Shown here one piece after another: positions 8,907 through 38,400 of a DNA stretch of 43,440 bases; the stretch's first letter is position 1, and each line of letters opens with the position of its first letter. The notes under the pieces were generated by a model. It had not been told where the DNA came from. It worked only from the letters and a program-made list of their open reading frames with translations, and did not search any database. Origin of the DNA: Candidatus Aenigmatarchaeota archaeon (GTDB taxonomy: Archaea; Aenigmatarchaeota; Aenigmatarchaeia; Aenigmatarchaeales; JAHLMR01); the NCBI GenBank assembly GCA_018920255.1, contig JAHLMR010000003.1:1-43440 (forward strand), read 5' to 3'. A program made the translations under genes and the position numbers.

Positions 8907-10994
8907 ATGGCATTTTTTAAGAAAAAAAGCAAAGAAGAAGAGGCTAAAGAGCGTGCTGAAAAGCAAAAAAAAGCAGAAATTGAAGAAATTATTAAATCAA
9001 CAAACATAGAATTTCCTGAAGTAAAACTACCAGTTAGTGAAAGAAAAATTATTAGAACTGCAGAATATGAAGCATTTTTAAAAGAACTTCAACAAGAACC
9101 AAAAACTTTTTATGAAAAAGCATGTGTATTTTCTGAAAAAATACTTAAAATAAAAATAAATCCAAAATCAAAAGAAAAAATTCAAGAAAAAATAAATGCA
9201 GCATATCTTAATGTTACACCCGAGGGGGTTTATTCATTTTCATTTCTTACTATTATATTTGGATCTTTATTTGTTTTATTTTTATCAATTTTAGGGGTTT
9301 TTGATTTAATATTCATTTTATTTCTTTTTTGCTGTGTTTTTGGTTTAGGATTTTATATTTATAATTATCCAGAATATCAAACAAAAGTAGTTTTAATGAA
9401 CATGTCTTCTGAAACAGTTCTTGCAATTTTATATATGATAATATACATGCGTACTAATCCAAATCTTGAAGGTGCATTGAAATTTGCGGCTCAAAATTTA
9501 CCCGGTGCTCTTGGTTTAGATTTAAAAAAAGTTGTTTGGGATATTGAGGTAGGAATTTATTCAAGTGCTGATATAGCAATAGCTTCTTATATAAATAAAT
9601 GGAAAGAAAAAAATGCTGAATTTGCAGAATCTTTACATATTTTAAGAGGGGTTGCAGTAGAACCAGGAAGACGTGAAATGATTTTTAAGGAAGCAATTAA
9701 TACAATATTAAACGGTACAAGAGAAAGAGCAAGACATTATGCAGCTGGGCTTAGAATGCCTATGATGATTATAAATGCAATGGGGGTCTTACTTCCTGTT
9801 ATGGGTTTAGTTTTATTTCCAATTGTAATGTTATTTATGTCAGATGTTATAAAACCAAGCTTCCTTGCTTTTGGATATGATGTTTTACTTCCTTTAGGTT
9901 TATTTTTAATAACATCTCATGTTTTAAGTACAAAACCACCAACGTTTTCTCAACCAGAAATTTCAAAATTAAAGGGAATACCTCCTTTAGGAAAAATGAA
10001 ATTTGGAAATTCGATAATTTCAATTTGGCCTATTTCATTAGTAATATTTTTACCATTTTTAATTATAGGTTTACTTGGAATAACTTCTCCTGATGCATTT
10101 TCTTCTGTTAATTTTTCAATTTTAATAACTTTTGGTATTGGATTAGCAATTGCAATTTTTTGTTTATTAGATAGTATGCAAAAAATGGCTGCAAGAAAAG
10201 CAATAGAAAAAATAGAAGAAGAATTTTCAGTAGCTTTATTTCAGTTAGGAAATTCTTTATCTTCAGGAATACCTCTTGAATCAGCATTACAAAAAACAAT
10301 ATCAAATGTTAAAAATCTAAAAATAGCTGAATTTTTCAATATAATACTAATGAACATGCAAAAATTTGGTTATACATTTGAGCAAGCAATTTTTGATAAA
10401 GAAGTAGGAGCAATTTGGTATTATCCTTCAAAGTTAATAGAATCTGTAATGCATACTGTAATTGAAAGTTCACAAAAATCAATTTCTGCTGCAGCAGAAA
10501 GTATGATGACAATTTCATCTTATTTAAAAAATGTACATGAAGTTAAAGAGGAAATATTTGAGTTATTAGGGGAAACAACATCAAGTATGAGATTTTTATC
10601 TATGTTTTTAGCTCCAATGATTGCTGGAGTTACTGTTACTATGGCTGTAATTATAATGCAAATTCTATCTAAAATAAGTTATTTAATGCCAACAATAACT
10701 GGAGGAGAAGTTTCTGCTGCAAGTGCTGCTTTTGTTATGCCTTGGAGCTTGCATGGAGGAAAATTACCAGTTTCACCAGCAGAATTTCAATTAATTATTG
10801 GAATATATGTAATAATACTTTCTATTTTATTATCAAAATTTTTAAATAGAATACAATATGGAGAAGATATTATCGGTGAAAGATCTTTAACAGGATGGAC
10901 TTTAATATTTGGAATGACAGTTTATGCATTTTCATGGTTAGTAACATACTCATTATTTGGAAATAGTATAGCTGCTTTATTAACTCCAATTTAA
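8907..10994 (+). CDS. Archaeal type IV pilus/archaellum platform protein (TadC/ArlJ-like, two T2SSF-like domains)
   Basis: 695 aa; two halves with EFAESLHILRGVAVEPGRREMIFKEAINT and EEFSVALFQLGNSLSSGIPLESALQKT, each near multiple TM helices. Confidence 0.8.
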   Translation: MAFFKKKSKEEEAKERAEKQKKAEIEEIIKSTNIEFPEVKLPVSERKIIRTAEYEAFLKELQQEPKTFYEKACVFSEKILKIKINPKSKEKIQEKINAAYLNVTPEGVYSFSFLTIIFGSLFVLFLSILGVFDLIFILFLFCCVFGLGFYIYNYPEYQTKVVLMNMSSETVLAILYMIIYMRTNPNLEGALKFAAQNLPGALGLDLKKVVWDIEVGIYSSADIAIASYINKWKEKNAEFAESLHILRGVAVEPGRREMIFKEAINTILNGTRERARHYAAGLRMPMMIINAMGVLLPVMGLVLFPIVMLFMSDVIKPSFLAFGYDVLLPLGLFLITSHVLSTKPPTFSQPEISKLKGIPPLGKMKFGNSIISIWPISLVIFLPFLIIGLLGITSPDAFSSVNFSILITFGIGLAIAIFCLLDSMQKMAARKAIEKIEEEFSVALFQLGNSLSSGIPLESALQKTISNVKNLKIAEFFNIILMNMQKFGYTFEQAIFDKEVGAIWYYPSKLIESVMHTVIESSQKSISAAAESMMTISSYLKNVHEVKEEIFELLGETTSSMRFLSMFLAPMIAGVTVTMAVIIMQILSKISYLMPTITGGEVSAASAAFVMPWSLHGGKLPVSPAEFQLIIGIYVIILSILLSKFLNRIQYGEDIIGERSLTGWTLIFGMTVYAFSWLVTYSLFGNSIAALLTPI

Positions 10995-11003
10995 GGTGAT
11001 TAA

Positions 11004-12401
11004 ATGAAAGGATTAAGTTTGTTAATATGGATTTTAATTATAATTGTAGTTTTAATTATAATTTTTGGTGTTTCTTTTGTTATATTAAAACAAGCTCAAG
11101 AATTTTATAAAAAACAAGAATATAGACTTGAATTGTTTAGTAGAGCAACAGCATTAAAAATACGTGGTTTTGATATAAATAGATTAATAATGTCTGATGA
11201 AGATAGAAATAAATTTGGATATGATAATTTTAGTGCATGGATAAATGAGGAAGATCTTGGCTCTCCATATAATGTTCCATATTCAGAAAATCCGTTTTAT
11301 AAAAAATATGGTAACAATACTGAAAATATAATTAATTGTATAAGAAATGCAATTATTTCTGGAAGGCCTTGTGTTTTATATTCTGATTTGAAAGTAATGC
11401 CTAGTTCCGATATTTATATTACACCAGATGAATGGATGAAACCTTCTATTAGATTAGAATATTATACTTTATTTGATAAGTTTTTAGAAAAAAGAAAAAT
11501 CAAATATATACCAATAAATTATGAAAAAGATGGAATTACACGATTTATATGTAATTATTATGCCAGGAAAGATCTGGCTGGCGAGAGTTATGTGATTTTT
11601 GATGAAGACGAATCTTTATTTATTGATTATGAGCATTTTCAGCCATTTGTTCATGGAGGATATATTGATAATAATTTTAAAAATATTAAATTAGGAGACG
11701 AAAAATATTTAGTTTGCTCAGTAGATAAGTGTCAATATGACGATAAAAATGATGACAATAAGACACCAAGAAGTTATACTATAGTTATTACAGATGCGCA
11801 TGTAGATGAAAATAATGAATGTAAATTTAAAGCAATCACTTTTAAAAATTTTCAAATTGGAAACAGTACAGATTCAGCAATCATTAGATTATTAGAAACC
11901 ATTAAAGATATGCCAGATTACTTTTTCAAATATGGAAGAATAAATCTTGATGTCGATTTAGATCGCGAGTATACTTGTACAGAAATAGTGTCAGCAGTCA
12001 ATGAAGGATTATGGGAATGGAACAGAAATCATTTTTATGATAAACAATATATAAAAACTTTAGTTGAATATGGAGTATATTTTAAAAAAGATGATTATGG
12101 CCAGTATATATCTTATAATTGTAATCATGATATAGGCGATTCAATTGATAAATTTGTTGAGACTAATTTTATAACAATATATTTTGATTTTGGACCCTTA
12201 CCCACGCAGAGAAAAATGCTTCATATAAATGATAACCTTTATCTTGATGTAGATCCAAATTATTGTAAAAATTTTAAAAAAATAAATTTAGATATTTCTA
12301 TAAAAGGCTTTAATTGTACTAAATTAACAAATGAAAAAACCGGAAAAGAAGAAACTGGTTTATCTATGTGGATTGATATTAATATTAATGGGGTGTCTTA
12401 A
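11004..12401 (+). CDS. Pilin-like protein with large ectodomain
   Basis: MKGLSLLIWILIIIVVLIIIFGVSFVI; GGTGA 5' of ATG; motif EIVSAVNEGLWEW. Confidence 0.75.
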   Translation: MKGLSLLIWILIIIVVLIIIFGVSFVILKQAQEFYKKQEYRLELFSRATALKIRGFDINRLIMSDEDRNKFGYDNFSAWINEEDLGSPYNVPYSENPFYKKYGNNTENIINCIRNAIISGRPCVLYSDLKVMPSSDIYITPDEWMKPSIRLEYYTLFDKFLEKRKIKYIPINYEKDGITRFICNYYARKDLAGESYVIFDEDESLFIDYEHFQPFVHGGYIDNNFKNIKLGDEKYLVCSVDKCQYDDKNDDNKTPRSYTIVITDAHVDENNECKFKAITFKNFQIGNSTDSAIIRLLETIKDMPDYFFKYGRINLDVDLDREYTCTEIVSAVNEGLWEWNRNHFYDKQYIKTLVEYGVYFKKDDYGQYISYNCNHDIGDSIDKFVETNFITIYFDFGPLPTQRKMLHINDNLYLDVDPNYCKNFKKINLDISIKGFNCTKLTNEKTGKEETGLSMWIDININGVS

Positions 12402-12529
12402 TGGCCCAAGAATCGATTTTTAATGCAGTTTTTTGGATTATTTTAATTGTTTTAATTATTTTAATAGGGATATATTTTATAGTTACAGGATTAAAAATAA
12501 ATTTAGGAGGAATTTTTGGGGTTGTATAG
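12401..12529 (+). CDS. Mini pilin-like peptide (42 aa)
   Basis: TAATG overlap with previous CDS; MAQESIFNAVFWIILIVLIILIGIYFIVTGLKINLGGIFGVV. Absent from supplied ORF track. Confidence 0.6.
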   Translation: MAQESIFNAVFWIILIVLIILIGIYFIVTGLKINLGGIFGVV

Positions 12530-12537
12530 GTGTTTAA

Positions 12538-13875
12538 ATGAAAGGAGCTATAAATATAATTTTTGTAATTTTATTTGCAATAATTATTGGAATTATAACA
12601 ATTGTAATTACTTTAGGACTTCTCGGGCAAAGACCATATGAATTAGGAAAAAATTTAGAATATACTGGAATAATTGAAATAGGAAAAGCAACTTTTAATT
12701 ACGAGGATTACATCGAAGCCGCTCCAAGTTTTAGGAATGAAGATGAGATTGAAGATTATTTTGAAAAAGATGGCTGTAAACTTTTGCAATATTGTACTAA
12801 TCAATATTTGAAATATGGAAAACCATGTCAAATTGGAGTATATGCAATTGGAAGTTATAGTGAAGGTACAGATATAAATTTTATAAGAAAATTTGCAAGT
12901 AGTATAACTCGCTGTAAATTTGAAATTGCACAAGAAATTGCTCCAGGAATAAAGCAAGAAATATGTTATTTCGATACTGACTCTATAGAAATGCTACAAA
13001 AATATGTTGATGCAAATGGTTTGTATTATTACAATATATCTTTTAAAAATTCTAGTTTTTATAGTGGAAATGATTTAACTACACCTAGTTTAGATTCAAC
13101 AACAATAATTTATGATATTACATCTTTTCCTCCAGATAATATTTGTAGTCCTGTTGCAGGTAGATATAAAATAGCTATTTTAAATGTAACAAGTAAAGAT
13201 CTTAATTGTAATTTATTAATAGCTATTGCATATTTGCCATATCTTGCAAATGAATTACCAACAGATTTTAAATCTGCATCAACGCCACTTAAAGTTTTTG
13301 ATGTAATTAGAAATATAAATTTTAGACCCATCTTTAACCAAAGAACATGGGATGCTATACCGCATGTTGTTGGAGCAAGTCAAGTTAATAATCAAGGAGC
13401 AAAAGATTGTAAAGATAGCCCATTTAAACCATGTTGTAGTCTTGACTCAGGAATAATTTATCATTGTGATTTTGGTGACTTTTCTAGATATTGTTTTAAT
13501 ACAACAGATTGTTTAAATTATATTATATTAACCCCAATTACTATAAAAATAAATGAAAATAGTGTAAATATCACTGATATTTTAAGAGCAGTTAGATTTG
13601 GACTTTATGCAAATCCAACTTATAGAAAGTATGAAATACCATATAGGGATTTTAAAAATATTCTTGTTCCCCCATATGTAGGTACAATTTGGAATAACGA
13701 TTATTCAAGTCAGCTCTCAGATTTTGAAGGAAGATATATTTACTATAATACCAATGAAGGAAAAGAAAAATGTTTTGGTAATTTAGATATACAAGTAGGA
13801 TATGCAATAAGACAAAAAAATAATAAAGAGTACTTATTGCCCATAATTTCTATAAGATGTTGGAAAGAGGCATAA
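12538..13875 (+). CDS. Pilin-like protein with large Cys-containing ectodomain
   Basis: MKGAINIIFVILFAIIIGIITIVITLGLLG; motif DILRAVRFGLYA; paralogous to CDS 17405-18901. Confidence 0.75.
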   Translation: MKGAINIIFVILFAIIIGIITIVITLGLLGQRPYELGKNLEYTGIIEIGKATFNYEDYIEAAPSFRNEDEIEDYFEKDGCKLLQYCTNQYLKYGKPCQIGVYAIGSYSEGTDINFIRKFASSITRCKFEIAQEIAPGIKQEICYFDTDSIEMLQKYVDANGLYYYNISFKNSSFYSGNDLTTPSLDSTTIIYDITSFPPDNICSPVAGRYKIAILNVTSKDLNCNLLIAIAYLPYLANELPTDFKSASTPLKVFDVIRNINFRPIFNQRTWDAIPHVVGASQVNNQGAKDCKDSPFKPCCSLDSGIIYHCDFGDFSRYCFNTTDCLNYIILTPITIKINENSVNITDILRAVRFGLYANPTYRKYEIPYRDFKNILVPPYVGTIWNNDYSSQLSDFEGRYIYYNTNEGKEKCFGNLDIQVGYAIRQKNNKEYLLPIISIRCWKEA

Positions 13876-13878
13876 AAT

Positions 13879-14526
13879 ATGGAAATAATAAAAACTATAA
13901 TAATTGCATTAATATTAATGATTATTTTATTAGCAGTAGGAATTTTGTTTGGACAACAAATTATAAGTGGGTTTTCCCAAGTTCTTAAAATCGGAGAGAA
14001 AGAGTCACAGCCTAAAGCAGAAAAATTTACAACGGAAATAAGTAGTTTAGGAATAACAGAAGACACTAATATTTATGATAAATTAAAAATATTTATAGAA
14101 AATTTTAATTTAGATTATAAACATGAAACTTCTCACGAAGATCGTTGGGGAACATGCTTTGATGGGTCATGTCACATAAGCTATTATATTTATGATTATT
14201 CTTCATATCCATTTAATTTTTCATTTAAAGATAATATTTATTTAGTTGATCTTTTGAGAACTGCTAGAGAATCAGAAAAAGTATGGTTTAAAAAAATTAA
14301 TAATAAAGATGCAAATGAAATATCAGAATGTTATATATCAAATTGTGATTTAAGTATTAATGAAAATGATTTTAGAAAGAATGATATAATTGTAAAAGTT
14401 CAAGACAGCCCATATAATAATAACTTCTTTCTTTTATATGTAAAAATTATATATATAGAAGAGGATGATTGGAATAATGTATATAATACATATAAGCCAG
14501 TTTTTATTATTTGTAGAGGCGAATAA
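13879..14526 (+). CDS. Pilin-like protein
   Basis: MEIIKTIIIALILMIILLAVGILFG; 3-nt gap from previous CDS; motif LVDLLRTARESEKVW. Confidence 0.7.
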   Translation: MEIIKTIIIALILMIILLAVGILFGQQIISGFSQVLKIGEKESQPKAEKFTTEISSLGITEDTNIYDKLKIFIENFNLDYKHETSHEDRWGTCFDGSCHISYYIYDYSSYPFNFSFKDNIYLVDLLRTARESEKVWFKKINNKDANEISECYISNCDLSINENDFRKNDIIVKVQDSPYNNNFFLLYVKIIYIEEDDWNNVYNTYKPVFIICRGE

Positions 14527-14529
14527 ATT

Positions 14530-14646
14530 ATGAAAGGAGTTGAAAAAGAAACATTAGCAAATATAATTTGGGGCATTTTAGTAATAACAATTTTACTTTT
14601 AATAGCTATATTTATCTTTTCATCTTTATTAACAATTAAAATTTAA
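14530..14646 (+). CDS. Mini pilin-like peptide (38 aa)
   Basis: MKGVEKETLANIIWGILVITILLLIAIFIFSSLLTIKI; absent from ORF track. Confidence 0.6.
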   Translation: MKGVEKETLANIIWGILVITILLLIAIFIFSSLLTIKI

Positions 14647-14691
14647 ATAAAACGAAAATTAATATTAAATAAAATTTGTTATGGTGAAAAA

Positions 14692-14889
14692 ATGACATTA
14701 TCAAAGGAAGGCTTAATTTTAGTTATGGTATTTATATTAGGTTTAATATTTATTGTAATTTATCTTGTTGTTCAATCAAATATTTTATCTGGTGGCCTAC
14801 AAACAGCAAACCCTCTCCCATGCGAAAATTGGCTAGGAAATTTAAAATGGCAAATTATAAAAGCCTTTGGCGGTACTCCGAGTTGTTAA
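14692..14889 (+). CDS. Small pilin-like protein (65 aa)
   Basis: GGTGA upstream; MTLSKEGLILVMVFILGLIFIVIYLVVQ; C-terminal Cys. Confidence 0.65.
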   Translation: MTLSKEGLILVMVFILGLIFIVIYLVVQSNILSGGLQTANPLPCENWLGNLKWQIIKAFGGTPSC

Positions 14890-14892
14890 GTT

Positions 14893-15099
14893 ATGGTAAA
14901 AGAAGAAACAAAAAACACCTTATCATTGATATTAATTATTTTAACAATTGTAATTTTAATTTTTATTTTAATGGGCCTTCTTACAGGAAAACTATATGGA
15001 AGAGAATTTTGTCTCAGAATTTCAGAAAGATTAACTTTAAATATTATTGGTTGGAACTTGAGACCATTAGATAAAATTTGTGAAATGCTACCTATATAA
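14893..15099 (+). CDS. Small pilin-like protein (68 aa)
   Basis: MVKEETKNTLSLILIILTIVILIFILMGLL; tight spacing. Confidence 0.6.
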   Translation: MVKEETKNTLSLILIILTIVILIFILMGLLTGKLYGREFCLRISERLTLNIIGWNLRPLDKICEMLPI

Positions 15100-15110
15100 A
15101 AGGTGTATAA

Positions 15111-15332
15111 ATGACAGAAGTTGAAATGAAAGAAGAAACATTAATGACCCCAGCAACATTAATTATATTAATTATAACTATTTTATTGGGCTTATTTATT
15201 CTTTTATGGTTTGAATCAGGAAGAAGCGGAGCAATTGTTGTATCAAAAATAATATGCGGATTAATTTCTTTATTCCCGTTTGGAAATGCAATGTCAATTT
15301 TATTAAAATGCCCAGCATTAACAGGAGGATAA
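15111..15332 (+). CDS. Small pilin-like protein (73 aa)
   Basis: MKEETLMTPATLIILIITILLGLFILLWF; two C-terminal Cys; start may be the Met at 15126. Confidence 0.6.
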   Translation: MTEVEMKEETLMTPATLIILIITILLGLFILLWFESGRSGAIVVSKIICGLISLFPFGNAMSILLKCPALTGG

Positions 15333-15334
15333 AA

Positions 15335-17392
15335 ATGAAAGGAATAAATACAACATTATTAGTTATCTTTGGTGCAGTAATAATATTAGCTATTGCAATT
15401 GCATGGCCAGCAATAATTAAAGCAGCTAATTTAGAATCTGTTTTAATTACATTAAAATTAAATTGTGGTTTAGAAGGAAAAGAATGTTGTAGTGGTTTTT
15501 ATTGTTTTGGTGGGCTTTCATGCATAGATGGAAAATGTTATGAACCTAAAATTTCAGTTGATTTTGATGATGATTTGCTTATTTATAATGAAACTGCTTT
15601 TAATGAATATTCTAACGAATGGTTGTTTGAGACAACTGGAAGCTGGAGAAGCGATATTAAACAAAATTTAAATAACATTGAAAAATTAAAAGAAGAATGC
15701 TATGGTGATTTTTCTGATTGTTCAGAGTGTGAATATTTTTATGGGTTTCAAAATAAAACAATTTCAATATTGAATAATCAGCCAATTGAATATTATTTTC
15801 CATGTGAATGTTATAACTGTGAAGGATGTATAGGTACTAATTGTGACAGATGTTTGGATTGTAATAAATACGGATATTTTAATCTTCCAAAGGGTATTCA
15901 ATGTAAATCTCGTTTAGATGTATTTTATGCTGAAAATCTATCATTTTGTTATAAATGTGAAGGATGTGACCCAGGTGCTGAACCATTTTCTGATTCTTGT
16001 AAAAGATGTGAATTTTGCGAATCTGGAGAAACTAAAAGTTATGATGTTTTTGATTCGGGTAAGGGTATTTCTTGTAAGTTTTGTGGAAATTGGAATGGTA
16101 CTACAGGAGAATCATGTTATAACTGCAAGAGACATGAAGCGTTTTTAGATAATTATAGATGTAAATATTGTAGAAAGGCAGAAAATCTTGATTGCTCGAA
16201 AAATACTAATTTTGCTTTTTGCGAATATTGGAAAAATGGTTTTGTAGAAGCAGCAGAAACCGGTGAATCTGTACCAATTATAACCGATATTCCGATAACA
16301 CCAGAAAAAAAAGATGAATTTGAAAATTTAATTATAAATATTGCACGTACTTGTAATAAGGATAGAAGCGTTTATAAAAATTTAGATTATGGAATGAAAC
16401 AATATTTTGGAGAAATTCCTTATATTTCTCCATATGAGGAAGACAGGCCAATAGTATTTACTGATGAAGATGGATATACATCATATTGGGATTGTGGTAA
16501 AAAAAATTTTGAAAACTGGATATCAAATGAGATCGTATTTGGTCATTATGATTTTGGAGCAACAAATTATTATTATAGTGTATATACAACTTATCATGGT
16601 AATCTTTTTATTTGCAGACAGCCTGTATTTGCAAATTCTGCAAATGATAATATTTTAGAAATTACAAGAAAATTAAGAGAATTAGATTTTACAAATAATA
16701 GTACTCTTCCTGGAAATATTACTGTATATTTAACTGGTATTTATATTGATTGGGCAGACAAATATAATAAAACATTTATTGTTGGACTAATAAATTTCAC
16801 AAGTAGTTATTTATTAGATTTAAACAATCATAATCATGAAAAAAATGATCTTTCAAATGCGGTTATGACAGGAATACAACAATGGAATGTTTTAAATGAA
16901 AATTTTAAACCAGAAGCAGAAAAATTATGCAAATTGATTAATGAAAGTATTCCTGATGATTTAAAAAATTTTAGGGATTACATTATCCCAGAAAATTGCA
17001 ATTATATAAATATAATTGATAAGAGATTAGATATTCCGGATACCTCGTATAGTTTTACATCAAATTGGTATCATTATTGGAATACTCAATCAATTTCTTT
17101 TTGTTTAGATGTTATTAAAAATAAAACTATAATTAATACATATGAGTGGGGTGGTGCTTATGATGAAAATAATTTTAATGTTTTTATTAAACCTGCATTT
17201 TTATATGTGCTTATATTTAATAAAGATTGTCCAAATGAATATGATGAATGTAAAGATGTAGTAGAAGATTATAAAAAACAATGTAATGATTATTATTATG
17301 AAAAATGTAAGGAAATAGAAATAAAATTAATACCAATTATTAGTGTTTTAAATCCTCATGATGAAAAGGCAGTACCGTGTCAACCTGTATAG
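15335..17392 (+). CDS. Cysteine-rich pilin-like protein (685 aa)
   Basis: Start moved from 15254 to ATG 15335 after AGGAGG: MKGINTTLLVIFGAVIILAIAIAWPAI, then CGLEGKECCSGFYCFGGLSCIDGKC and repeated CxxC motifs. Confidence 0.75.
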   Translation: MKGINTTLLVIFGAVIILAIAIAWPAIIKAANLESVLITLKLNCGLEGKECCSGFYCFGGLSCIDGKCYEPKISVDFDDDLLIYNETAFNEYSNEWLFETTGSWRSDIKQNLNNIEKLKEECYGDFSDCSECEYFYGFQNKTISILNNQPIEYYFPCECYNCEGCIGTNCDRCLDCNKYGYFNLPKGIQCKSRLDVFYAENLSFCYKCEGCDPGAEPFSDSCKRCEFCESGETKSYDVFDSGKGISCKFCGNWNGTTGESCYNCKRHEAFLDNYRCKYCRKAENLDCSKNTNFAFCEYWKNGFVEAAETGESVPIITDIPITPEKKDEFENLIINIARTCNKDRSVYKNLDYGMKQYFGEIPYISPYEEDRPIVFTDEDGYTSYWDCGKKNFENWISNEIVFGHYDFGATNYYYSVYTTYHGNLFICRQPVFANSANDNILEITRKLRELDFTNNSTLPGNITVYLTGIYIDWADKYNKTFIVGLINFTSSYLLDLNNHNHEKNDLSNAVMTGIQQWNVLNENFKPEAEKLCKLINESIPDDLKNFRDYIIPENCNYINIIDKRLDIPDTSYSFTSNWYHYWNTQSISFCLDVIKNKTIINTYEWGGAYDENNFNVFIKPAFLYVLIFNKDCPNEYDECKDVVEDYKKQCNDYYYEKCKEIEIKLIPIISVLNPHDEKAVPCQPV

Positions 17393-17404
17393 GGTGAATA
17401 GAAT

Positions 17405-18901
17405 ATGGAAATATCGCTTAGAGTTATTTTAATTATATTTGCATTTATATTAGCTGTTTTAATTGTAGTTTTTTTCTCTCTTCAACTTTTTGGCTTTCAA
17501 CCAATTTCTCTTTTAGGAGGAGAAAAAGTTGGAGAACTTAAATCAGCGTCATCTGTAGTTTCAGAATCTTTATTAAACTTTAAAACAGAAGATTATAGTT
17601 ATTTAGATACATCAGGAATGATAGTGTTTCCAGGAGAATATCCTGTTGATGCAAGTAAATATTTTTCTTTATATCCTATTGAAATGAAAAAATGGGAGAT
17701 AACAGAATGTGCAAAGTGTGACAGAATGAGTAATGATCCAAGTAATTTTTATTATAATTATTATATTTGTAATTTTATATACGTACAAGGAGATTTACTT
17801 TGTGGTGCTTCTGTAAATGATCCAAGTAATTATTATTTTCTTTGTAAATATGATTCAAAAGAAGGCAGTGGAGATTATCCACTATATCATAATTTAACAT
17901 GTTTTTACGAAGATACTTCACAACAACCAGAACTTTGTAAAAAATTAGAAACTTGCATGAAAAAATTAGCAGCAGGAATAGATTCAACATGTGTAGTAGA
18001 TGAAATTTTAGATATGGGCTATTATTATGTTGATGGTCATGTAATAAATCAAGGACTTGACATTGTTAATAATATTAGAAATACTATTAAAAAATGTAAA
18101 ATTTCTTTAACACAAAAGTTAAATGAAGATATAGAACAAAAAATTTGTAATTTTGAAAATAGAAATTTTATAATTGATAATAATATTGATCCATCTGATT
18201 TTTTCTCGTTTTCTAAATCAGTTTTTTATCCAATATGCGGAAAAGGTGGATTTGGTGAGTTAGATTATATTTATTACTATTATCCTTATGGTACACACAG
18301 GAGCCTTATAAGAGATGAAAATATACCAGCAAAATTAAAACTTGTAATGGGAAATTTTAGACCGCGTAATTGTAATTTTACTTTATTTTTATGTTCTCAA
18401 GTACCATTTGCAGAGGATGAAGATGATTCAACAATGAAAATATATGAATTTTTTAGAGATTGGAATCCTACTATGTTATATAAAAACATTACATGTAATA
18501 ACTTTCAATCACCATACTCTTCACTTAATTTTTTATATAATACTTATCGTATAGAATTAGATGATGCTTATTCACCAGAAGATATAGTTAATTCTATAGA
18601 AACCGGATTATATGCATGGACTTTTATAAATGGAGAAAATTTTAATGGAACTATACCTTGGAATTATACATTTTGTACATTTTGTGGCTTTACTTGGAAA
18701 GAAGAAAATATAAATCCGATGAATTTGAATATATGTGATTGGACTGATCGCAGGTGGAATAAAATTAGTATAGATTGTAGTCGTGGAAGAAATAAAAATA
18801 TGTGTGATGGAACTCTTTCGATAAGTGTTTTCATTAGTGGTTGGAATAGCTGGACGAACCTAGAGCCAGTTTTTAATGTATATGTTTGGGATGATAAATA
18901 G
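17405..18901 (+). CDS. Pilin-like protein with large Cys-containing ectodomain
   Basis: MEISLRVILIIFAFILAVLIVVFFSLQLFG; IRNTIKKCKISLTQKLNEDIEQKICNF matches ASSITRCKFEIAQEIAPGIKQEICYF of CDS 12538-13875. Confidence 0.75.
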   Translation: MEISLRVILIIFAFILAVLIVVFFSLQLFGFQPISLLGGEKVGELKSASSVVSESLLNFKTEDYSYLDTSGMIVFPGEYPVDASKYFSLYPIEMKKWEITECAKCDRMSNDPSNFYYNYYICNFIYVQGDLLCGASVNDPSNYYFLCKYDSKEGSGDYPLYHNLTCFYEDTSQQPELCKKLETCMKKLAAGIDSTCVVDEILDMGYYYVDGHVINQGLDIVNNIRNTIKKCKISLTQKLNEDIEQKICNFENRNFIIDNNIDPSDFFSFSKSVFYPICGKGGFGELDYIYYYYPYGTHRSLIRDENIPAKLKLVMGNFRPRNCNFTLFLCSQVPFAEDEDDSTMKIYEFFRDWNPTMLYKNITCNNFQSPYSSLNFLYNTYRIELDDAYSPEDIVNSIETGLYAWTFINGENFNGTIPWNYTFCTFCGFTWKEENINPMNLNICDWTDRRWNKISIDCSRGRNKNMCDGTLSISVFISGWNSWTNLEPVFNVYVWDDK

Positions 18902-18914
18902 AGGTGTAATTAAA

Positions 18915-19184
18915 ATGAAAGCAACAATTTCAGTTGAAATGCTTGTAATGGTAGTTTTTCTTATAATAATTATAGCAGTTCTGTTTGGGCTAATTAATCC
19001 ATCAATATCACAAAAAATGGAAACATCAAAACCACCTGAGGGCTGTGAAACAAACAATGATTGCATAAATTCAGAATTTGGATACAAATGTATGAATATA
19101 GAAAATAAAGGATGGAAATGTGGTTGCATTTCAAATGGTGATTGTACTGATAATAAAATTTGCAAAAACAATGTTTGTAGTTGA
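18915..19184 (+). CDS. Small Cys-rich pilin-like protein
   Basis: Start moved from 18876 to ATG 18915: MKATISVEMLVMVVFLIIIIAVLFG; CETNNDC...CM...CGCISNGDCTDNKICKNNVCS. Confidence 0.7.
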   Translation: MKATISVEMLVMVVFLIIIIAVLFGLINPSISQKMETSKPPEGCETNNDCINSEFGYKCMNIENKGWKCGCISNGDCTDNKICKNNVCS

Positions 19185-19189
19185 TTAAA

Positions 19190-19318
19190 ATGAAAAAGAA
19201 ACACGGAATTTCAATAGTTTATGGAATAATTATTGTATTAATAGTTATGGCAATTATATTCATGTTAATTTATTTAGGATATAATAATTTAAAAGTCCTT
19301 ATATCTAAAAATTTATAG
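19190..19318 (+). CDS. Mini pilin-like peptide (42 aa)
   Basis: MKKKHGISIVYGIIIVLIVMAIIFMLIYLGYNNLKVLISKNL; absent from ORF track. Confidence 0.55.
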   Translation: MKKKHGISIVYGIIIVLIVMAIIFMLIYLGYNNLKVLISKNL

Positions 19319-19326
19319 GTGAAAAT

Positions 19327-19590
19327 ATGCCAACAACAGTAGTAAATATATTACTTATAATAATTATTTTTGTTATTGCATTAGCATTTATTTTTTTATT
19401 TATAAGTTCACCAATATCAACTGGAGAATCTACCACAGATGCACAAGCAAAAATAGCTAGTAACTGCAAGGCTTGGATAGAAACCAAATGTAGTGATACA
19501 TATTATAATAATAATTTAAAAACATATTGTGAAAAACTTTATGGCGAAGCTCAAGCAAAGGATAGATGTAAAGTATTTTGTGGATGTTAA
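19327..19590 (+). CDS. Small Cys-containing pilin-like protein
   Basis: MPTTVVNILLIIIIFVIALAFIFLF; C-terminus AKDRCKVFCGC; GGTGA upstream. Confidence 0.65.
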   Translation: MPTTVVNILLIIIIFVIALAFIFLFISSPISTGESTTDAQAKIASNCKAWIETKCSDTYYNNNLKTYCEKLYGEAQAKDRCKVFCGC

Positions 19591-19605
19591 AATGGGGGGA
19601 TAAAA

Positions 19606-19893
19606 ATGAAAGGCATATCAGATCAAGTTTTAATGTTTGTAATAGCAATAATTATAGTTTCAATAATTTTAATTATAGCAATAATTTTTTTAAGTGGAGG
19701 AAAAACCGGGGGAGAGCAAGGTCTTCTTAGTGCTGCAGCTCAACAATGTTGTGCAGAATATAAAGCTTGTATAGCACGCGGAGGAACGGACTGTCAAAAT
19801 ATTAACTGTAGATTTCCAAACGGAACAATAACAAGCGCCTATACACTTATAAAGACATATTCTGGGCAATATCCGAGTGATTATTGTAAATAA
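19606..19893 (+). CDS. Small Cys-containing pilin-like protein
   Basis: MKGISDQVLMFVIAIIIVSIILIIAIIFLSGG; QQCCAEYKACIARGGTDCQNINC. Confidence 0.7.
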   Translation: MKGISDQVLMFVIAIIIVSIILIIAIIFLSGGKTGGEQGLLSAAAQQCCAEYKACIARGGTDCQNINCRFPNGTITSAYTLIKTYSGQYPSDYCK

Positions 19894-19902
19894 GTGAATA
19901 AA

Positions 19903-22584
19903 ATGAAAGGCAGTTTAGAATTTGAACAAAGAATGATTTTTGGAATTATATTATTTATTTTAATAGCAGCAATATTATTAAGAGTTTCTACATCTCCTGA
20001 ATGTGATATGTATGCAAATGAAACAGCAAAAGAATTAAGGGATGCAATAAATGAAGTTGCAAGTGATAATTTTCCATCTTGGAATCAAAATTTCCCTCCA
20101 TCAGATGAAAATAAAGATTTTTACAAACCCGTAATTATAAAACTCTGTGAGAAAAAAATCGGTTGGGCAGGAGCAGCGTTATCTGCAGCAATTCCAACAT
20201 ATCAGATTTTTTATGAATCATTCCCCGAAGCTCCAGCATGGGCTGCCTGGGATGAGTCATATCCATTTTCAGGTGGAGCTGCAAACGCATTATTGAATTA
20301 TGCAATTATTAAGTATGGTCCAAAAATTGGAAAAGGTATTGGAAAAGGAATTAAAGCAACTTATAAAATTGGTACTAAAGTAGCTAAATATGGTTTTAAA
20401 GAAGTTTATAAAACGTCAAAATTAAATAATTTTTTTAATAAAGTAAAAACTGAAGGATTTATAAAAGCAGTTTTAAAAAAACCAGAAATTGAAGAAAAGA
20501 GTATAAAAGAAGCATTTGAGAAATTTCTTTCTCAAGATTATAAACAGGCAGCAAGACAAGGAGATCATATAATATTTCAAAAGGCTTTAATGGAACAGGA
20601 ACAAAATATAGAAATATATAAAGCTGGTGGTACTATAGAAAATGCATTAGTTGATACACCAGAAGGAAAAAAATTTATAATTACTAGAGAAAATATAAAT
20701 GCATACAAGCTTATATATGATTCTGCAAACTCAGAAACACAAAAAATTTTAGATAAATATTTTTATGTACCAAGCAAATTTCAAAAAATTGAAAACTTTA
20801 AATGGAAAATTTTTAATGTTAAACAAACAATAGGAAAACTGTGGCGTGGATCATTTCTAGGAAAAACTACATCTACCTTGAAAGAAAAATATTATAATTT
20901 TAAAAAAAGCGTATATAAAGCTTTTGGTCGGGATATTTCTAATTTAGAAGCTGCAAAAACAGCTGAAATTTATAAAGTTAGATGCTATGCTGATCCTGAA
21001 TGGTGTAGAAAATTATTAATAGAGAGTTGGGATGATGCTGATATTGGAACCGTAATGTCTCAAATAGCAAAACATAAAGTGGAAAAAGGAAAGTTTACTG
21101 ATGCAGAAATGTTTAAGTTTATGGAAGAACATGAAAAATGGATAAGAATAAATGAAGAAGTAGAAACTATAATTTCATATGATAAAGCTAATGATGTTAA
21201 TATGAGAATAAAAGATTTATTTAAAGAAGCTGATACTATCCGAACAGATGAGGAGTATGAGGCTTTAATGAACAAGTTAGATAAAATAGAGAAACCAGAC
21301 GATAAGTTTATAAGTGAACTACAAGATACTACATTTAAAGGCTATAGTCAGCAAGAAATTAAAGAAATTTTAATAATAACAGATGCTGAGATAAAAAAAA
21401 TACATGCAGAAAAAGTTGCAGCTAGTGGAAAAATCACATCTCCTGAATCTGCTGGACCCATCTTGTGGAGAGATAATCCATTAAGATATGCTTTAAATGA
21501 TATAAGTTCAAATGGAATAACTACAAAAGATAATTGGAATAACCTTTATACTACCTTTTCAACAAAGGAAGAAATTTCAACTTTTTTTGCAAAAAGAATA
21601 GTAGAAAATGAAGATCAGTTAAAAAATTTAATTGAGAAAAAAGCAAAGGGTTATTTCTTTGTTAAATTAGGACGTGTTTATCCTACACTTTTATTTACAA
21701 AGCCAGGCGCTCCTTTAATTCCAGGAGGAGCATATTTTTCAAGAATAGTTGAAGATGAATTAAACAAATATTGTACATCAGGAGCAATATGTTTTACTTT
21801 AGGATCAAATGTATATTCCTATCCGCTTAATGAAGAAGCAACAAGATATGCAATAAGGTTATGGCGACCTAATCCGAGTGTAGAACAGAGACAACCTATT
21901 TTTATACAAACAGGCTGGTTTTATCCTAGTATAGAAGAGCATCCTAGATTTTATACAGTAAGTCCATGCTTTGGATATGCTAAAGTCTGGAAATCAGGAC
22001 AGAATATATTTATTAGTTTTGATGTTGATCCGACAACAGGACAAACTAAAAAATGTAAAGTTCTTGATGAAAATGGAAAAGAAAAAGATGTTGCTAATTA
22101 TTGTTATGCCTCATTTAATGATGTTTGGGGTTCTAATTATAATAATTTAGAAACCGGTACTGGAACAGCATGGCTTAGTGACGGTGCAATAGCTGCTCAT
22201 ATTATAGGAATTTTCGTTGGTTGTGCTGCATCAACTGTGGGTTATCAACAATGTGTTCAGATAGCAACACTTGCAGATGAAGGAGCATTATCTGTGGCAG
22301 CAACTACAGCCGCTTATAGTGGAGATAAAGATTGGGGTTATTGGACATATTATAAAGCTTCAGATGCTATAGATCTTTTAGATATAGCTGGAAGTCTTGG
22401 AAGTAAGGGAGCAGTAAAAGCTATAACTACTGCACAAAAGTATTTACCAGACTTATCTGTTTATGTTCAGGCATTAGGAGATGCAGCTATGGGGTGGCCA
22501 AAAAGAGGGCTTGATAAAGTAAAACCATTAAATGAAGATGATATTTATAGAAGTTTAGGACAATGTATTTGGAGTAGTGAATAA
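19903..22584 (+). CDS. Giant pilin-headed protein (893 aa)
   Basis: GTG at 19894 is probably part of the ribosome-binding site; ATG 19903 gives MKGSLEFEQRMIFGIILFILIAAILL. Confidence 0.75.
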   Translation: MKGSLEFEQRMIFGIILFILIAAILLRVSTSPECDMYANETAKELRDAINEVASDNFPSWNQNFPPSDENKDFYKPVIIKLCEKKIGWAGAALSAAIPTYQIFYESFPEAPAWAAWDESYPFSGGAANALLNYAIIKYGPKIGKGIGKGIKATYKIGTKVAKYGFKEVYKTSKLNNFFNKVKTEGFIKAVLKKPEIEEKSIKEAFEKFLSQDYKQAARQGDHIIFQKALMEQEQNIEIYKAGGTIENALVDTPEGKKFIITRENINAYKLIYDSANSETQKILDKYFYVPSKFQKIENFKWKIFNVKQTIGKLWRGSFLGKTTSTLKEKYYNFKKSVYKAFGRDISNLEAAKTAEIYKVRCYADPEWCRKLLIESWDDADIGTVMSQIAKHKVEKGKFTDAEMFKFMEEHEKWIRINEEVETIISYDKANDVNMRIKDLFKEADTIRTDEEYEALMNKLDKIEKPDDKFISELQDTTFKGYSQQEIKEILIITDAEIKKIHAEKVAASGKITSPESAGPILWRDNPLRYALNDISSNGITTKDNWNNLYTTFSTKEEISTFFAKRIVENEDQLKNLIEKKAKGYFFVKLGRVYPTLLFTKPGAPLIPGGAYFSRIVEDELNKYCTSGAICFTLGSNVYSYPLNEEATRYAIRLWRPNPSVEQRQPIFIQTGWFYPSIEEHPRFYTVSPCFGYAKVWKSGQNIFISFDVDPTTGQTKKCKVLDENGKEKDVANYCYASFNDVWGSNYNNLETGTGTAWLSDGAIAAHIIGIFVGCAASTVGYQQCVQIATLADEGALSVAATTAAYSGDKDWGYWTYYKASDAIDLLDIAGSLGSKGAVKAITTAQKYLPDLSVYVQALGDAAMGWPKRGLDKVKPLNEDDIYRSLGQCIWSSE

Positions 22585-22627
22585 TTTTATAAATTAAATA
22601 AAATATAAAATATTAAAAGGTGATAAA

Positions 22628-22927
22628 ATGAAGGGTTTAGAACTTCCAATAAATTTAATTATCATAATTATAATTGCCGGAGTAATTCTTTTAGCACTAC
22701 TTTATTTATTTACAAATGCATGGCAAAGTGGTGGAGGCGGAGTTCAAAGTGAAAATGTTTTTAGAAGCTTATGTCAAAAATTTGTTACACAGTATAATTG
22801 TGATACAAGTAAAATAAGCCAAGTAAGTTTAACTATTTCAGGAAAGACTTATTCTTTATCTACAGAATGTAGTAGCAGGGGAGTTTCTGGTGATGCCTGC
22901 GCAAGAGCATGCGGCTGTTTAATTTAA
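22628..22927 (+). CDS. Small Cys-containing pilin-like protein
   Basis: GGTGATAAAATG; MKGLELPINLIIIIIIAGVILLALLYLF; C-terminus DACARACGCLI. Confidence 0.7.
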   Translation: MKGLELPINLIIIIIIAGVILLALLYLFTNAWQSGGGGVQSENVFRSLCQKFVTQYNCDTSKISQVSLTISGKTYSLSTECSSRGVSGDACARACGCLI

Positions 22928-23277
22928 ATATTTAAAGTAATCCTTTGTGTTAAATTTAATTGTATAATTGGTTGATATACTGAAATTAAAATATTACATT
23001 TATTATTTTCACATTTTTCTGTAGTTATAGTTATTTTATTTTCATCATTTCCTTCATAAAATAAATTTAAATTTTTTATTTTTGTACTATCAACTTTTGA
23101 AAGAGCAATTATGGAATTTTTTGCAATTTCAAAATCATTTCTTGCAGAATATGCATAATCATTTCTTAAAATTATATTTTTTTCTTCACTTGCTGTTTGA
23201 GAAATTAAAATAAAAATTGTTATAGTAGCTACTATCATAAAAATTATACTTGAAACTTGTAAAATTGCACCTTTCAT
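22924..23277 (-). CDS. Pilin-like protein (minor pilin type)
   Basis: Start at second Met: MKGAILQVSSIIFMIVATITIFILI. Confidence 0.7.
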   Translation of the reverse strand: MKGAILQVSSIIFMIVATITIFILISQTASEEKNIILRNDYAYSARNDFEIAKNSIIALSKVDSTKIKNLNLFYEGNDENKITITTEKCENNKCNILISVYQPIIQLNLTQRITLNI

Positions 23278-23282
23278 TTTAT

Positions 23283-23810
23283 TCACCCAGGCTCTATAAC
23301 ATATAAAATAAGCTTATAATCAATATTTGGAATAAATACATATTTGACGTTATAAATTTTATATTTCATAAAAATTTGTGATGGATTATTTTCTGCAATA
23401 ATTATTGCTCCTCCAGGTGACTCCCAAGTTAAAATATATTTAGATTTTATCCAATTATTAATTTCATTCAATAATTTTTTACCAATTTCTTCACATGTAA
23501 TTTCTTTATTATTTATTTTAATCTTATTATTTTCATTACTACAATTTACTTTTTGTAAGCTTGCAATTGTAAATAATTCAGAAAATTTAATATTTATATT
23601 CTCATCAGTATAATTTGTCTCTAAAACAAGATTAATAACGTTTTGATATAATGTTGGAAGATTAATACCATGTACTGTTAGAGTAATTTCTTTCTTACCA
23701 CCAATTTCTGAAATTTGATACATATAAATAATAATTCCAGCAGTAATAAAAGTAACCCCTATTAAAAACAATAATGCTAATAGCATTGCGAGTAAAGTTA
23801 CACCTTTCAT
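23283..23810 (-). CDS. Pilin-like protein
   Basis: MKGVTLLAMLLALLFLIGVTFITAGIIIYMY. Confidence 0.7.
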   Translation of the reverse strand: MKGVTLLAMLLALLFLIGVTFITAGIIIYMYQISEIGGKKEITLTVHGINLPTLYQNVINLVLETNYTDENINIKFSELFTIASLQKVNCSNENNKIKINNKEITCEEIGKKLLNEINNWIKSKYILTWESPGGAIIIAENNPSQIFMKYKIYNVKYVFIPNIDYKLILYVIEPG

Positions 23811-24244
23811 TTTAGATCACATACTTTAACAGTAATTTCTTTTTGATTTATATTTCCATCATCCAGTATAAGTACAGGTAGAATATATTTGCCTATCTTA
23901 TCTCCTGAGCAATATTTACTTTGCGGAATTGAATATTTATAATCATCTATCTGTATTTCGGTTATTTTACTCTTATCTGTTATAAAACAATTTTCAAGAT
24001 TCAAATTATCTAATTTTGTTTTATTCAAAATTCCTTGATATATTATATTGTTTTCTTCATACGCAGCACATTTTGAAGAAATAAACATATACCCTATATC
24101 TTGAGCTTCTCTATTTAATTGATTTACATCAAAAATTAAATTTAAATTTATTAAATTAAATAAAATAGCTAAAATAGCTAAAATAGTATATCCTAAAGTA
24201 ACAATATTTATTAGTAACTCGCTTAAATCCCATTGGCCCTTCAT
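23807..24244 (-). CDS. Pilin-like protein with class-III-like signal
   Basis: MKGQWDLSELLINIVTLGYTILAILAILF resembles KGQxSxE-type signals; overlaps next gene by 4 nt. Confidence 0.7.
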   Translation of the reverse strand: MKGQWDLSELLINIVTLGYTILAILAILFNLINLNLIFDVNQLNREAQDIGYMFISSKCAAYEENNIIYQGILNKTKLDNLNLENCFITDKSKITEIQIDDYKYSIPQSKYCSGDKIGKYILPVLILDDGNINQKEITVKVCDLK

Positions 24245-24254
24245 TTATACTACC

Positions 24255-25130
24255 TTATTTGTATTCAAATTTTATAATATCATAACCATATAATTTTCCT
24301 TTAGTAATATACAAATATTTGGTTTTACTTCCTGTTTGAATTGTAATAGGCATTAATGAAAAATTATAATCAAAAGTAAAATTAAAACTCTCTTTTGTTT
24401 TAAAAATATCAGAAGATTCAATTAATAAATACATATGACGATTTCCATCAGCAGATGGATCATATATAAATGAATTCGCGTTTCCCATTGAAGCAATATT
24501 ATTTTCATCAATCCAGCATCCGCCAGTAATATAATCTAATTTAAATGGAGTATTATTTTCTGTTTTTTGAGAAGAATTACCAGATAAATTTCCAGTACCT
24601 ATTACTATACTCCAACCTTTTTTAATTTTATAACTACAAAACTGTGAGCCCCACTGACAATCTTTTAAACAAAAATAAGCATGATACCATTGGTTAACAT
24701 CTTTAAATGACTCATTTTTTTCACATTTTAAATTCCCATTTTCGTCATAAATTCTTAAAGTTAAGTTTATTGTAGTTGGAAAGCCGATTGAAAAATTACT
24801 TATTATAGCTTCTGGATAGAAATCGCAATCTTTAGGGACTGTAAAATTTACATATCCATTATATCCAACCATCATTATATTTCCTTTACTATAAACAGTT
24901 ATTTTTGATGTTATTGGAATTAATAATTTTGCTTGAAAATCCCCTGGGAACGAACTAGCCTGAGAGACGTATGTTACTATTTGCTGCCCTAAGTATTTTG
25001 GATGAAATTCAGCAGCAGAAGATAAAATCGGCATAAAAATTAATTTACTTCCTGCTAATAAAATTATTACAGATAAAATTACGCATACAAAAAATAACAT
25101 AAAACTTGTCATTAACGATATTCCACGCAT
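24255..25130 (-). CDS. Pilin-like protein with beta-rich ectodomain
   Basis: MRGISLMTSFMLFFVCVILSVIILLAGSKLIF. Confidence 0.7.
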   Translation of the reverse strand: MRGISLMTSFMLFFVCVILSVIILLAGSKLIFMPILSSAAEFHPKYLGQQIVTYVSQASSFPGDFQAKLLIPITSKITVYSKGNIMMVGYNGYVNFTVPKDCDFYPEAIISNFSIGFPTTINLTLRIYDENGNLKCEKNESFKDVNQWYHAYFCLKDCQWGSQFCSYKIKKGWSIVIGTGNLSGNSSQKTENNTPFKLDYITGGCWIDENNIASMGNANSFIYDPSADGNRHMYLLIESSDIFKTKESFNFTFDYNFSLMPITIQTGSKTKYLYITKGKLYGYDIIKFEYK

Positions 25131-36562: not shown

Positions 36563-37330
36563 TTATTTTTCTTTTAAAACTTCTTCTATAACAGCCCTAA
36601 ATTCTTCTTCTTCAGCAGTTAAGTTATTTTCTCTTTCAAATGCATTTCCAATTCTATAATATCTGCATCCAAATATATAGGTAGGTACTGTATATTCAGG
36701 ATTAAATTTTTTATATATTTCAATTTCAGAATTTGGTATATCTCCTTCTTTTGTTAAAGTAAGAAGATTATCCTTTGTATCTAAATCCCAATGATATGCA
36801 ACAATTAATCCTTTATCAACATATTCTTTTGCTATTTTATCAAATGCAGGACCAGCCCAAGTGCAGTGAGGACAAAAGGATGTTGAAAACATTCTTATTA
36901 TTGGCTTTCCGTTTTCTGTACAAATAGGGCCAGAGAAAATTTTAAATGATTTTATTTTACTAGTTTCATTTATTATACATGCTTCATTTGCAGAAAATGG
37001 GCAATTTTCTGGATGTTGTGGATCACATGTACCAAAAACAAAAAGATTATAAATTCCATAAACAGTATAAGCTCCTGTAACTATAAAAGTTATAGTAAAA
37101 ATCCATGCAAAAAGTTCAAAATGTTTAAATAAAATTTTTGCAATTTTTGGATATTTTGGAAGAATTTTAGAAACTAAAGCAGTTTTTATTTTTTCATCAA
37201 AAGATGATTCACATGGTCTTAATGTAATTTTATATGCTATACATTTAAAAGATTCTTTTGCATATTCTCTATATTTTGCAGAAAATATTCCTAAAACTGC
37301 AAATATAAAAAAACTAATTATACAAAGCAT
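36563..37330 (-). CDS. Membrane-anchored thioredoxin-fold protein
   Basis: TM segments plus MFSTSFCPHCTWAGPAFDKIAKEY. Confidence 0.7.
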   Translation of the reverse strand: MLCIISFFIFAVLGIFSAKYREYAKESFKCIAYKITLRPCESSFDEKIKTALVSKILPKYPKIAKILFKHFELFAWIFTITFIVTGAYTVYGIYNLFVFGTCDPQHPENCPFSANEACIINETSKIKSFKIFSGPICTENGKPIIRMFSTSFCPHCTWAGPAFDKIAKEYVDKGLIVAYHWDLDTKDNLLTLTKEGDIPNSEIEIYKKFNPEYTVPTYIFGCRYYRIGNAFERENNLTAEEEEFRAVIEEVLKEK

Positions 37331-37340
37331 TAAAAATCAC

Positions 37341-38330: not shown

Positions 38331-38400
38331 TTTATTCACCTCTTTAACTTTGAAAGTATTAAATTTTAAATTATTTAAATCTTTTCTAAATCAAATTATT

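What the first reader, a model, noticed from the sequence alone, without database searches (positions are those of the whole stretch)
8907..25130. Multi-pilin gene cluster: one TadC/ArlJ-like platform with about 20 pilin-like proteins
Sixteen + strand and four - strand genes encode a short basic N-terminus (often M-K-G), one hydrophobic helix and an ectodomain from nearly none to ~870 aa. The + strand genes are overlapping or a few nt apart over ~12 kb, directly after a type IV pilus platform gene. Archaeal pilus and archaellum loci usually carry a few pilins; this number and size spread suggests a complex multi-subunit appendage, adhesion or uptake machine. Function is inference.
Basis: partly seen in the sequence, partly recalled or inferred. 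Interest (0 to 1): 0.85.

Follow-up and report, generated by a model that had tools for sequence, protein, structure and literature searches.

The report
Twenty-subunit pilus machine in DPANN archaea
A tiny, probably host-dependent archaeon carries a conserved gene cluster that builds a type IV pilus-like surface machine from about twenty different helix-anchored subunits, where most archaeal pili use only a few; it could be how these cells contact their hosts.

Summary
After a two-domain T2SSF (TadC/ArlJ-type) platform gene (8907-10994), the window encodes exactly 16 plus-strand and 4 minus-strand proteins made of an N-terminal hydrophobic helix plus 0 to about 860 aa of ectodomain. The genome belongs with Aenigmatarchaeota (DPANN). 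The platform is 46-57% identical in full-length relatives from the order, in most of which it follows its own ATPase and precedes 14-20 such proteins in the same order of sizes and families. The four minus-strand genes are orthologs of the tail of that operon, so here the tail is inverted. The cognate ATPase (61-65% identical to the relatives' neighbours), a coiled-coil protein and three more small pilins sit on contig C3. The platform family occurs in 142/147 genomes of the phylum and 118/121 of a second DPANN phylum. I conclude this is a type IV filament system with a greatly expanded set of pilins, probably a multi-subunit tip or priming complex on a small-pilin fibre for cell contact. It appears to be the CpaF/TadC/coiled-coil 'Locus 2' described for DPANN in 2024, where no filament proteins were recognised; 'diverse pilins' in DPANN islands were proposed in 2019. 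Function and signal cleavage are inferred: only about half the subunits have a K/R-G/A leader.

The parts
7112..8869 (+). Secreted transglutaminase-like protein, 37 nt upstream of the platform (possible accessory; not at this place in the relatives checked)
   Evidence: PF01841 E 6.6e-16; transglutaminase-type peptidases are linked to archaeal T4P in PMC4858521 section 15
8907..10994 (+). Platform protein, TadC/ArlJ type, two T2SSF domains, 695 aa
   Evidence: PF00482 twice; orthologs in 16/19 genomes of the order, 46-57% identical over full length
11004..12401 (+). p1, large pilin-like protein, 465 aa, MKG start
   Evidence: ectodomain shared with p2, p7, p8
12401..12529 (+). micro 'headless' helix protein, 42 aa
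   Evidence: 38-45 aa counterparts near p1/p2 in relatives
12538..13875 (+). p2, large pilin-like protein, 445 aa, MKG start
13879..14526 (+). p3, pilin-like protein, 215 aa, no KG leader
   Evidence: positional counterparts of 199-227 aa in relatives
14530..14646 (+). micro helix protein, 38 aa, MKG start
14692..14889 (+). p4, small helix protein, 65 aa, two Cys
14893..15099 (+). p5, small helix protein, 68 aa, two Cys
15111..15332 (+). p6, small protein, 68-73 aa, acidic N-terminus, second hydrophobic segment (may be a hairpin, not a pilin)
   Evidence: (counterparts in 6 of 7 relatives)
15335..17392 (+). p7, large Cys-rich pilin-like protein, 685 aa, 42 Cys, MKG start
17405..18901 (+). p8, large pilin-like protein, 498 aa, 20 Cys
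   Evidence: AF2 model pLDDT 61, pTM 0.62, no PDB fold match
18915..19184 (+). p9, Cys-rich mini-domain pilin-like protein, 89 aa, 8 Cys
   Evidence: (ectodomain matched in 6 of 7 relatives)
19181..19318 (+). micro helix protein, 45 aa
   Evidence: 47-58 aa counterparts after p9 in relatives
19327..19590 (+). p10, small pilin-like protein, 87 aa
   Evidence: weak PF07790 Pilin_N match, E 8e-4, 20.7 bits versus cut-off 25.2
19606..19893 (+). p11, small pilin-like protein, 95 aa, MKG start
19903..22584 (+). p12, giant pilin-like protein, 893 aa, MKG start (GTG 19894 also possible)
   Evidence: one ortholog in each of 7 relatives, and in 4 loci of families outside the order
22628..22927 (+). p13, small pilin of the MKGxELPIN type, 99 aa, 6 Cys; major-pilin candidate family
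   Evidence: 38% identical over 58 aa to a C3 pilin; family members end the cluster in relatives
22924..23277 (-). m4, pilin-like protein, 117 aa, MKG start
   Evidence: orthologs as the fourth gene after the giant in relatives
23283..23810 (-). m3, pilin-like protein, 175 aa, MKG start
23807..24244 (-). m2, pilin-like protein, 145 aa, MKG start
24255..25130 (-). m1, pilin-like protein, 291 aa, MRG start
   Evidence: m1-m4 are on the platform strand right after the giant in relatives, so this block is inverted here

Best explanation
This is one part of a type IV filament machine that is widespread in two DPANN phyla (Aenigmatarchaeota and the phylum of a Woesearchaeota relative). SHOWN by sequence: a platform protein, a dedicated ATPase on contig C3, and an ordered, conserved set of about twenty different proteins that share only an N-terminal helix. 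INFERRED: many are trimmed by the A24 prepilin peptidase; the ATPase and platform push their helices out of the membrane into a helical fibre; the small six-cysteine MKGxELPIN proteins (one here, three beside the ATPase) are the main fibre subunit; the single-copy large, giant and Cys-rich proteins form a fixed tip or priming complex, as minor pilins do in other type IV pili, that carries binding ectodomains; and the machine makes contact with partner cells. My confidence is about 0.9 that it is a type IV filament system, about 0.55 for the tip-complex-plus-small-pilin model, and about 0.45 for host or partner contact.
For: Platform: two T2SSF domains, 16/19 genomes of the order, 142/147 of the phylum, 118/121 of a second DPANN phylum. 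ATPase on C3: T2SSE match, FlaI/TadA-like, 61-65% identical to the ATPases next to the order's platforms but only 26-27% to the two other type IV ATPases of its own genome. Peptidase A24 at C24 with WDLK and GGGDGE motifs. Conserved slots: p6, p9, p12 and m1-m4 each find mostly one ortholog per relative, in the same order; similar size order throughout. Duplication within the cluster: p1, p2, p7 and p8 share an ectodomain. Control: the genome's two other platform loci have about 4-5 pilin-like neighbours each. Antecedents: PMC6393860 and PMC11291902.
Against: Only 12 of 20 window subunits, and 60 of 115 across the order, have a K/R-G/A leader. Orthologs of one slot differ in having it (p12, m1, m2), so signal cleavage cannot be assumed for all. 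p6 looks like a two-helix membrane protein. No ectodomain matches a known adhesin, and no fold was identified. Several relatives have the platform with no or few neighbouring pilins (L094, L105, L125, L131). Nothing tested shows a filament or host contact.
Confidence: 0.6

Rival explanations
1. A static membrane-anchored envelope complex: the helices are ordinary uncleaved signal anchors, and the ATPase and platform use these proteins to build a non-extending structure or a protein exporter (a pseudopilus-like piston) rather than a pilus.
For: Half the subunits lack a leader, and leader presence varies within ortholog slots. There are many single-copy subunits. Relatives have 3-5 copies of a 4-5-TM membrane protein family near the ATPase.
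Against: A dedicated T2SSE ATPase and platform, the prepilin peptidase, and MKGxELPIN small pilins in one to three copies per locus speak for polymer assembly.
Confidence: 0.2
2. An uptake machine: the pilins bind nutrients (as in the Sulfolobales bindosome) or DNA (as in a competence pilus) and bring them to the membrane of an auxotrophic cell.
For: Small-genome DPANN cells need external nutrients. The ATPase gives a weak match to the bindosome ATPase model (E 9.5e-17, 61 bits versus cut-off 1000).
Against: No ComEC homolog in any of the 19 genomes of the order. No solute-binding domain in the ectodomains scanned.
Confidence: 0.15
3. An archaellum or another ordinary known archaeal pilus with pilins that merely diverged fast.
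For: DPANN pilins evolve fast (PMC6393860). The ATPase matches the FlaI model, though far below cut-off (142 bits versus 550).
Against: Two other platform loci with about 4-5 pilin-like genes each exist in the same genome, and its other two ATPases are only 26-27% identical. The fixed set of roughly twenty large and tiny subunits matches none of the archaeal variants in the parts of PMC4858521 read.
Confidence: 0.05

Closest known systems
DPANN cluster-2 'Locus 2' (CpaF, TadC, coiled-coil proteins), Hamm et al. 2024, PMC11291902
   Same: ATPase plus platform with small coiled-coil proteins next to the ATPase, in Aenigmarchaeota and Woesearchaeota; the layout of my relatives matches
   Different: That paper shows filament proteins only for Locus 1; here the platform is followed by 14-20 pilin-like genes. 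Identity could not be tested against the Nanohaloarchaeum sequences.
DPANN dark-matter islands with FlaI, TadC and 'diverse pilins', Makarova, Wolf and Koonin 2019, PMC6393860 Fig. 2A
   Same: The same kind of inference: unrecognisable signal-peptide proteins around an ATPase and TadC are pilins
   Different: An example figure only; no orthologous slot order, giant pilin, shared ectodomain or DPANN-wide survey is described in the passages read. Which genomes are shown is not in the held text.
Clade 1 archaeal T4P (Methanococci, Methanobacteria, Thermococci), Makarova et al. 2016, PMC4858521
   Same: A complex archaeal pilus with small major pilins, at least 5 minor pilins, extra membrane proteins and associated transglutaminase-type peptidases
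   Different: Fewer minor pilins. Its large DUF2341 tip adhesins and two platform genes were not seen here: one platform gene with two domains, and no DUF2341 match in the proteins scanned. The peptidase subfamily (5-TM PibD/FlaK or 9-TM EppA) was not tested.
Minor-pilin priming/tip complexes of bacterial type IV pili and T2SS (general knowledge)
   Same: Several single-copy pilins, some very large, encoded together and thought to prime and cap the fibre
   Different: About 4-6 subunits there, up to about 20 here; headless 38-58 aa subunits and the 840-1034 aa p12 family have no counterpart I know of.

Membership tests
Type IV filament superfamily | T2SSF-type platform protein | tested here: met
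   PF00482 twice in one 695-aa protein
Type IV filament superfamily | Cognate T2SSE/VirB11-type assembly ATPase | tested here: met
   Not in the window; on contig C3, PF00437 E 4.9e-16, orthologous to the ATPases beside the order's platforms
Type IV filament superfamily | Prepilin peptidase in the genome | tested here: met
   PF01478 on C24, 28.2 bits versus cut-off 26.5
Type IV filament superfamily | Class III signal: short basic leader ending in G/A directly before the helix | tested here: inconclusive
   12/20 in the window, 60/115 in the order; leader variable between orthologs. No dedicated predictor was available.
Type IV filament superfamily | Subunits polymerise into a fibre | not testable with these tools
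   Needs imaging or biochemistry
DPANN Locus 2 (PMC11291902) | ATPase and TadC gene with adjacent coiled-coil protein genes | tested here: met
   Relatives L059-L061 and L078, and own contig C3 with ATPase plus a 127-aa coiled-coil-like protein; in the window's genome the platform is on another contig
DPANN Locus 2 (PMC11291902) | Homology to the Nanohaloarchaeum Locus 2 proteins | not tested
   Those sequences were not fetched; no named Nanohaloarchaeota record was among the hits
Competence pilus | ComEC DNA channel | tested here: not met
   0/19 genomes of the order; control bacteria positive
Bindosome | Solute-binding ectodomain on the pilin-type helix | tested here: not met
   No such Pfam or NCBIfam match in the proteins scanned
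Archaellum | FlaH, FlaF/FlaG and FlaC/D/E beside FlaI/FlaJ | not tested
   The two other platform loci of the genome were read but not assigned

The most novel reading that the evidence does not exclude
The filament proteins missing from the DPANN Locus 2 pilus are this family of about twenty single-copy and few-copy pilins, and they assemble into a heteromeric host-contact tip far larger than any known minor-pilin complex, with subunits whose prepilin leader is optional.
Probability: 0.4. Interest if true: 0.82.

Novelty: new variant of a known kind. Interest (0 to 1): 0.62.

Why it matters
Cultivated DPANN archaea depend on contact with another archaeon, and the contact machinery is largely unknown. 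A near-universal DPANN platform/ATPase system with a conserved set of roughly twenty ordered slots gives a concrete parts list to look for in proteomes and tomograms of cultivated DPANN, and a case for how complex a pilin-only assembly can become.

Tried and rejected
Family-level search: only the window's own genome is held, so I moved to order, phylum and a second phylum. AlphaFold2 of the giant p12: pLDDT 40, pTM 0.30, not interpretable. AlphaFold2 of p8: partly confident (pLDDT 61, pTM 0.62), but Foldseek against the PDB gave nothing below E = 1.4. PDB sequence profiles of both families: nothing credible. Calcium-loop (EF-hand-like) motif in the MKGxELPIN pilins: seen by eye in the three C3 copies but matched by the pattern in only 1 of 15 others, dropped as a family feature. 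Weak Pfam hits of single ectodomains (WW, YebF, UBA and others) rejected as far below cut-off. The KaiC-family ATPase at 2342-3484 was considered as a FlaH-like partner and not adopted: no conserved link was seen.
Full report
WHAT IS THERE. The window is part of contig C19 of a 552-kb, 94.6%-complete genome in 25 contigs. Its order contains Ca. Aenigmarchaeum subterraneum (contig G001:C5 and ASMQ01000005.1 both measure 41,863 bp), and most other named hits are Candidatus Aenigmatarchaeota, so the source is a DPANN archaeon of that phylum (inference). The platform ORF 8907-10994 has two T2SSF domains. Behind it lie 16 plus-strand ORFs, including three micro-ORFs of 38-45 aa, and four minus-strand ORFs. 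Single N-terminal hydrophobic segments and [KR][GA] leaders are strongly enriched there compared with the other genes of the window (Fisher 7e-7 and 3e-5). No ectodomain reaches a curated Pfam cut-off, and the five tested against NCBIfam give no match.

CONSERVATION. With the platform as query, 16 of 19 genomes of the order match; full-length copies are 46-57% identical. In seven of them 20-kb stretches show the same cluster: platform, then ~450 aa, ~430-470 aa, ~200-227 aa, tiny proteins of 40-81 aa, 700-1034 aa, 450-884 aa, ~90 aa, a 40-58 aa protein, ~90-110 aa twice, a giant of 840-1034 aa, then four proteins and the small ELPIN-type pilins; some loci lack single slots or are cut by contig ends. 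Iterative HMM searches within these loci (E-values relative to that small set) find p12 in 7/7, m1 and m2 in 7/7, m3 in 6/7, m4 in 4/7, p9 in 6/7 and p6 in 6/7, mostly one per locus and in the same order. In the relatives m1-m4 follow the giant on the platform strand; in the window they are on the opposite strand in reverse order. This explains the two strands: an inversion of the operon tail. p1, p2, p7 and p8 share one ectodomain family (E 1e-11 to 1e-57 after iteration), so part of the set arose by duplication. The giant family reaches four loci outside the order (L069, L070, L071, L073).

THE REST OF THE MACHINE. In relatives the ATPase (about 750 aa) directly precedes the platform. In the window this place is taken by a secreted transglutaminase-like protein, a type of peptidase noted beside archaeal type IV pili (PMC4858521). 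The cognate ATPase is on contig C3 and is 61-65% identical to the relatives' neighbours but only 26-27% to the two other type IV ATPases of the genome. Beside it lie a 127-aa coiled-coil-like protein, 44-50% identical to the proteins beside the relatives' ATPases, and three small pilins of 117-141 aa. A four-gene array of 4-5-TM proteins, which in relatives lies just upstream of the ATPase, is on contig C1. A prepilin peptidase is on C24. The genome has two further platform loci with about 4-5 pilin-like genes each, which serve as an internal control for what an ordinary locus looks like.

DISTRIBUTION. A profile of the platform finds 142 of 147 genomes of the phylum, including 40 of 40 near-complete ones, and 118 of 121 in the phylum of the Woesearchaeota relative. 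In sampled 20-kb stretches the number of pilin-like neighbours varies: 14-20 in the window's order, 18 in L098, 16 in L112 and L113, about 8-14 in many others, and none or few in some (L094, L105, L125, L131), where the pilins must be elsewhere or absent. These counts rest on a hydropathy rule and a greedy ORF caller and are approximate.

LEADERS. Only about half of the subunits have the K/R-G/A leader, and orthologs of the same slot differ. For p12: MKG, MRG or MPMKG in four genomes; MVSTSM, MSAED, MAMLE, MPEEAM in four others. MPELPVN beside MKGVELPVN-type starts in L049 is similar. Either signal cleavage is optional, or leaderless genes start at the mature end. This is an observation, not a tested mechanism, and it is the main weak point of the pilin reading.

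HOW IT PROBABLY WORKS. The ATPase and platform assemble small six-cysteine MKGxELPIN pilins into a fibre, and the single-copy large and giant subunits form a tip or priming complex that carries the binding domains (inference by analogy with minor pilins). Cys-rich ectodomains (p7 has 42 Cys, p8 20, p9 eight) would suit a surface position. Contact with host cells is suggested by the lifestyle of cultivated DPANN archaea and by the literature, not by anything tested here. DNA uptake of the usual kind is disfavoured because ComEC is absent.

WHAT IS KNOWN. Makarova, Wolf and Koonin (PMC6393860) already proposed that islands of unknown signal-peptide proteins around FlaI and TadC in DPANN are diverse pilins. 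Hamm et al. (PMC11291902) described two conserved pilus loci in cluster-2 DPANN; their Locus 2 has an ATPase, TadC and coiled-coil proteins, with filament proteins shown only for Locus 1. The present locus looks like Locus 2, with the pilins attached. What appears new, within the literature that could be searched, is the ordered and conserved set of about twenty subunits, the giant family, the shared ectodomain family, the headless micro-pilins and the variable leaders. I rate it a new variant of a known kind.

Noticed in passing
L059:6263-9994, L072:6245-10000, L064:4218-9554: The ATPase next to the platform is 1243-1778 aa long in three relatives, with insertions at residues corresponding to about 484 and 540 of the 750-aa form; L059 passes the NCBIfam intein N-terminal model (32.5 bits versus 24.5). 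L064 seems to carry two insertions.
   Followed up: partly
L059:3311-4917, L072:3337-4977, L078:4971-6607; own contig C1:11885-13980: Arrays of 3-5 paralogous 4-5-TM proteins of about 170-190 aa sit upstream of the ATPase in Aenigmatarchaeota and Woesearchaeota; the ones scanned reach no curated Pfam cut-off. Found in 18/19 genomes of the order.
   Followed up: partly
window 36563-38339 (-): Two membrane-anchored thioredoxin/DsbA-like proteins; possible oxidative folding helpers for the Cys-rich pilins. Link untested.
   Followed up: no
window 1-2310: Large beta-helix surface protein (NosD/Beta_helix) with a C-terminal membrane anchor, running off the window's left end.
   Followed up: no
window 14692-15332; counterparts in L039-L049: p4-p6 are 65-73 aa proteins with two Cys about 18-22 residues apart behind the helix; several counterparts have acidic N-termini and a second hydrophobic stretch, unlike pilins.
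   Followed up: partly
L035:3371-4696: The three C3 pilins each contain a calcium-loop-like stretch (DANKNRHINDK, DANKNGKINDP, DANKDGNLDDKD) that most other family members lack.
   Followed up: partly
window 38401-41287 (-): Aconitase X large subunit, a small protein beside it and a UbiD-family decarboxylase, next to an ORF resembling mevalonate kinase: looks like the archaeal modified mevalonate pathway. The kinase was not tested.
   Followed up: no
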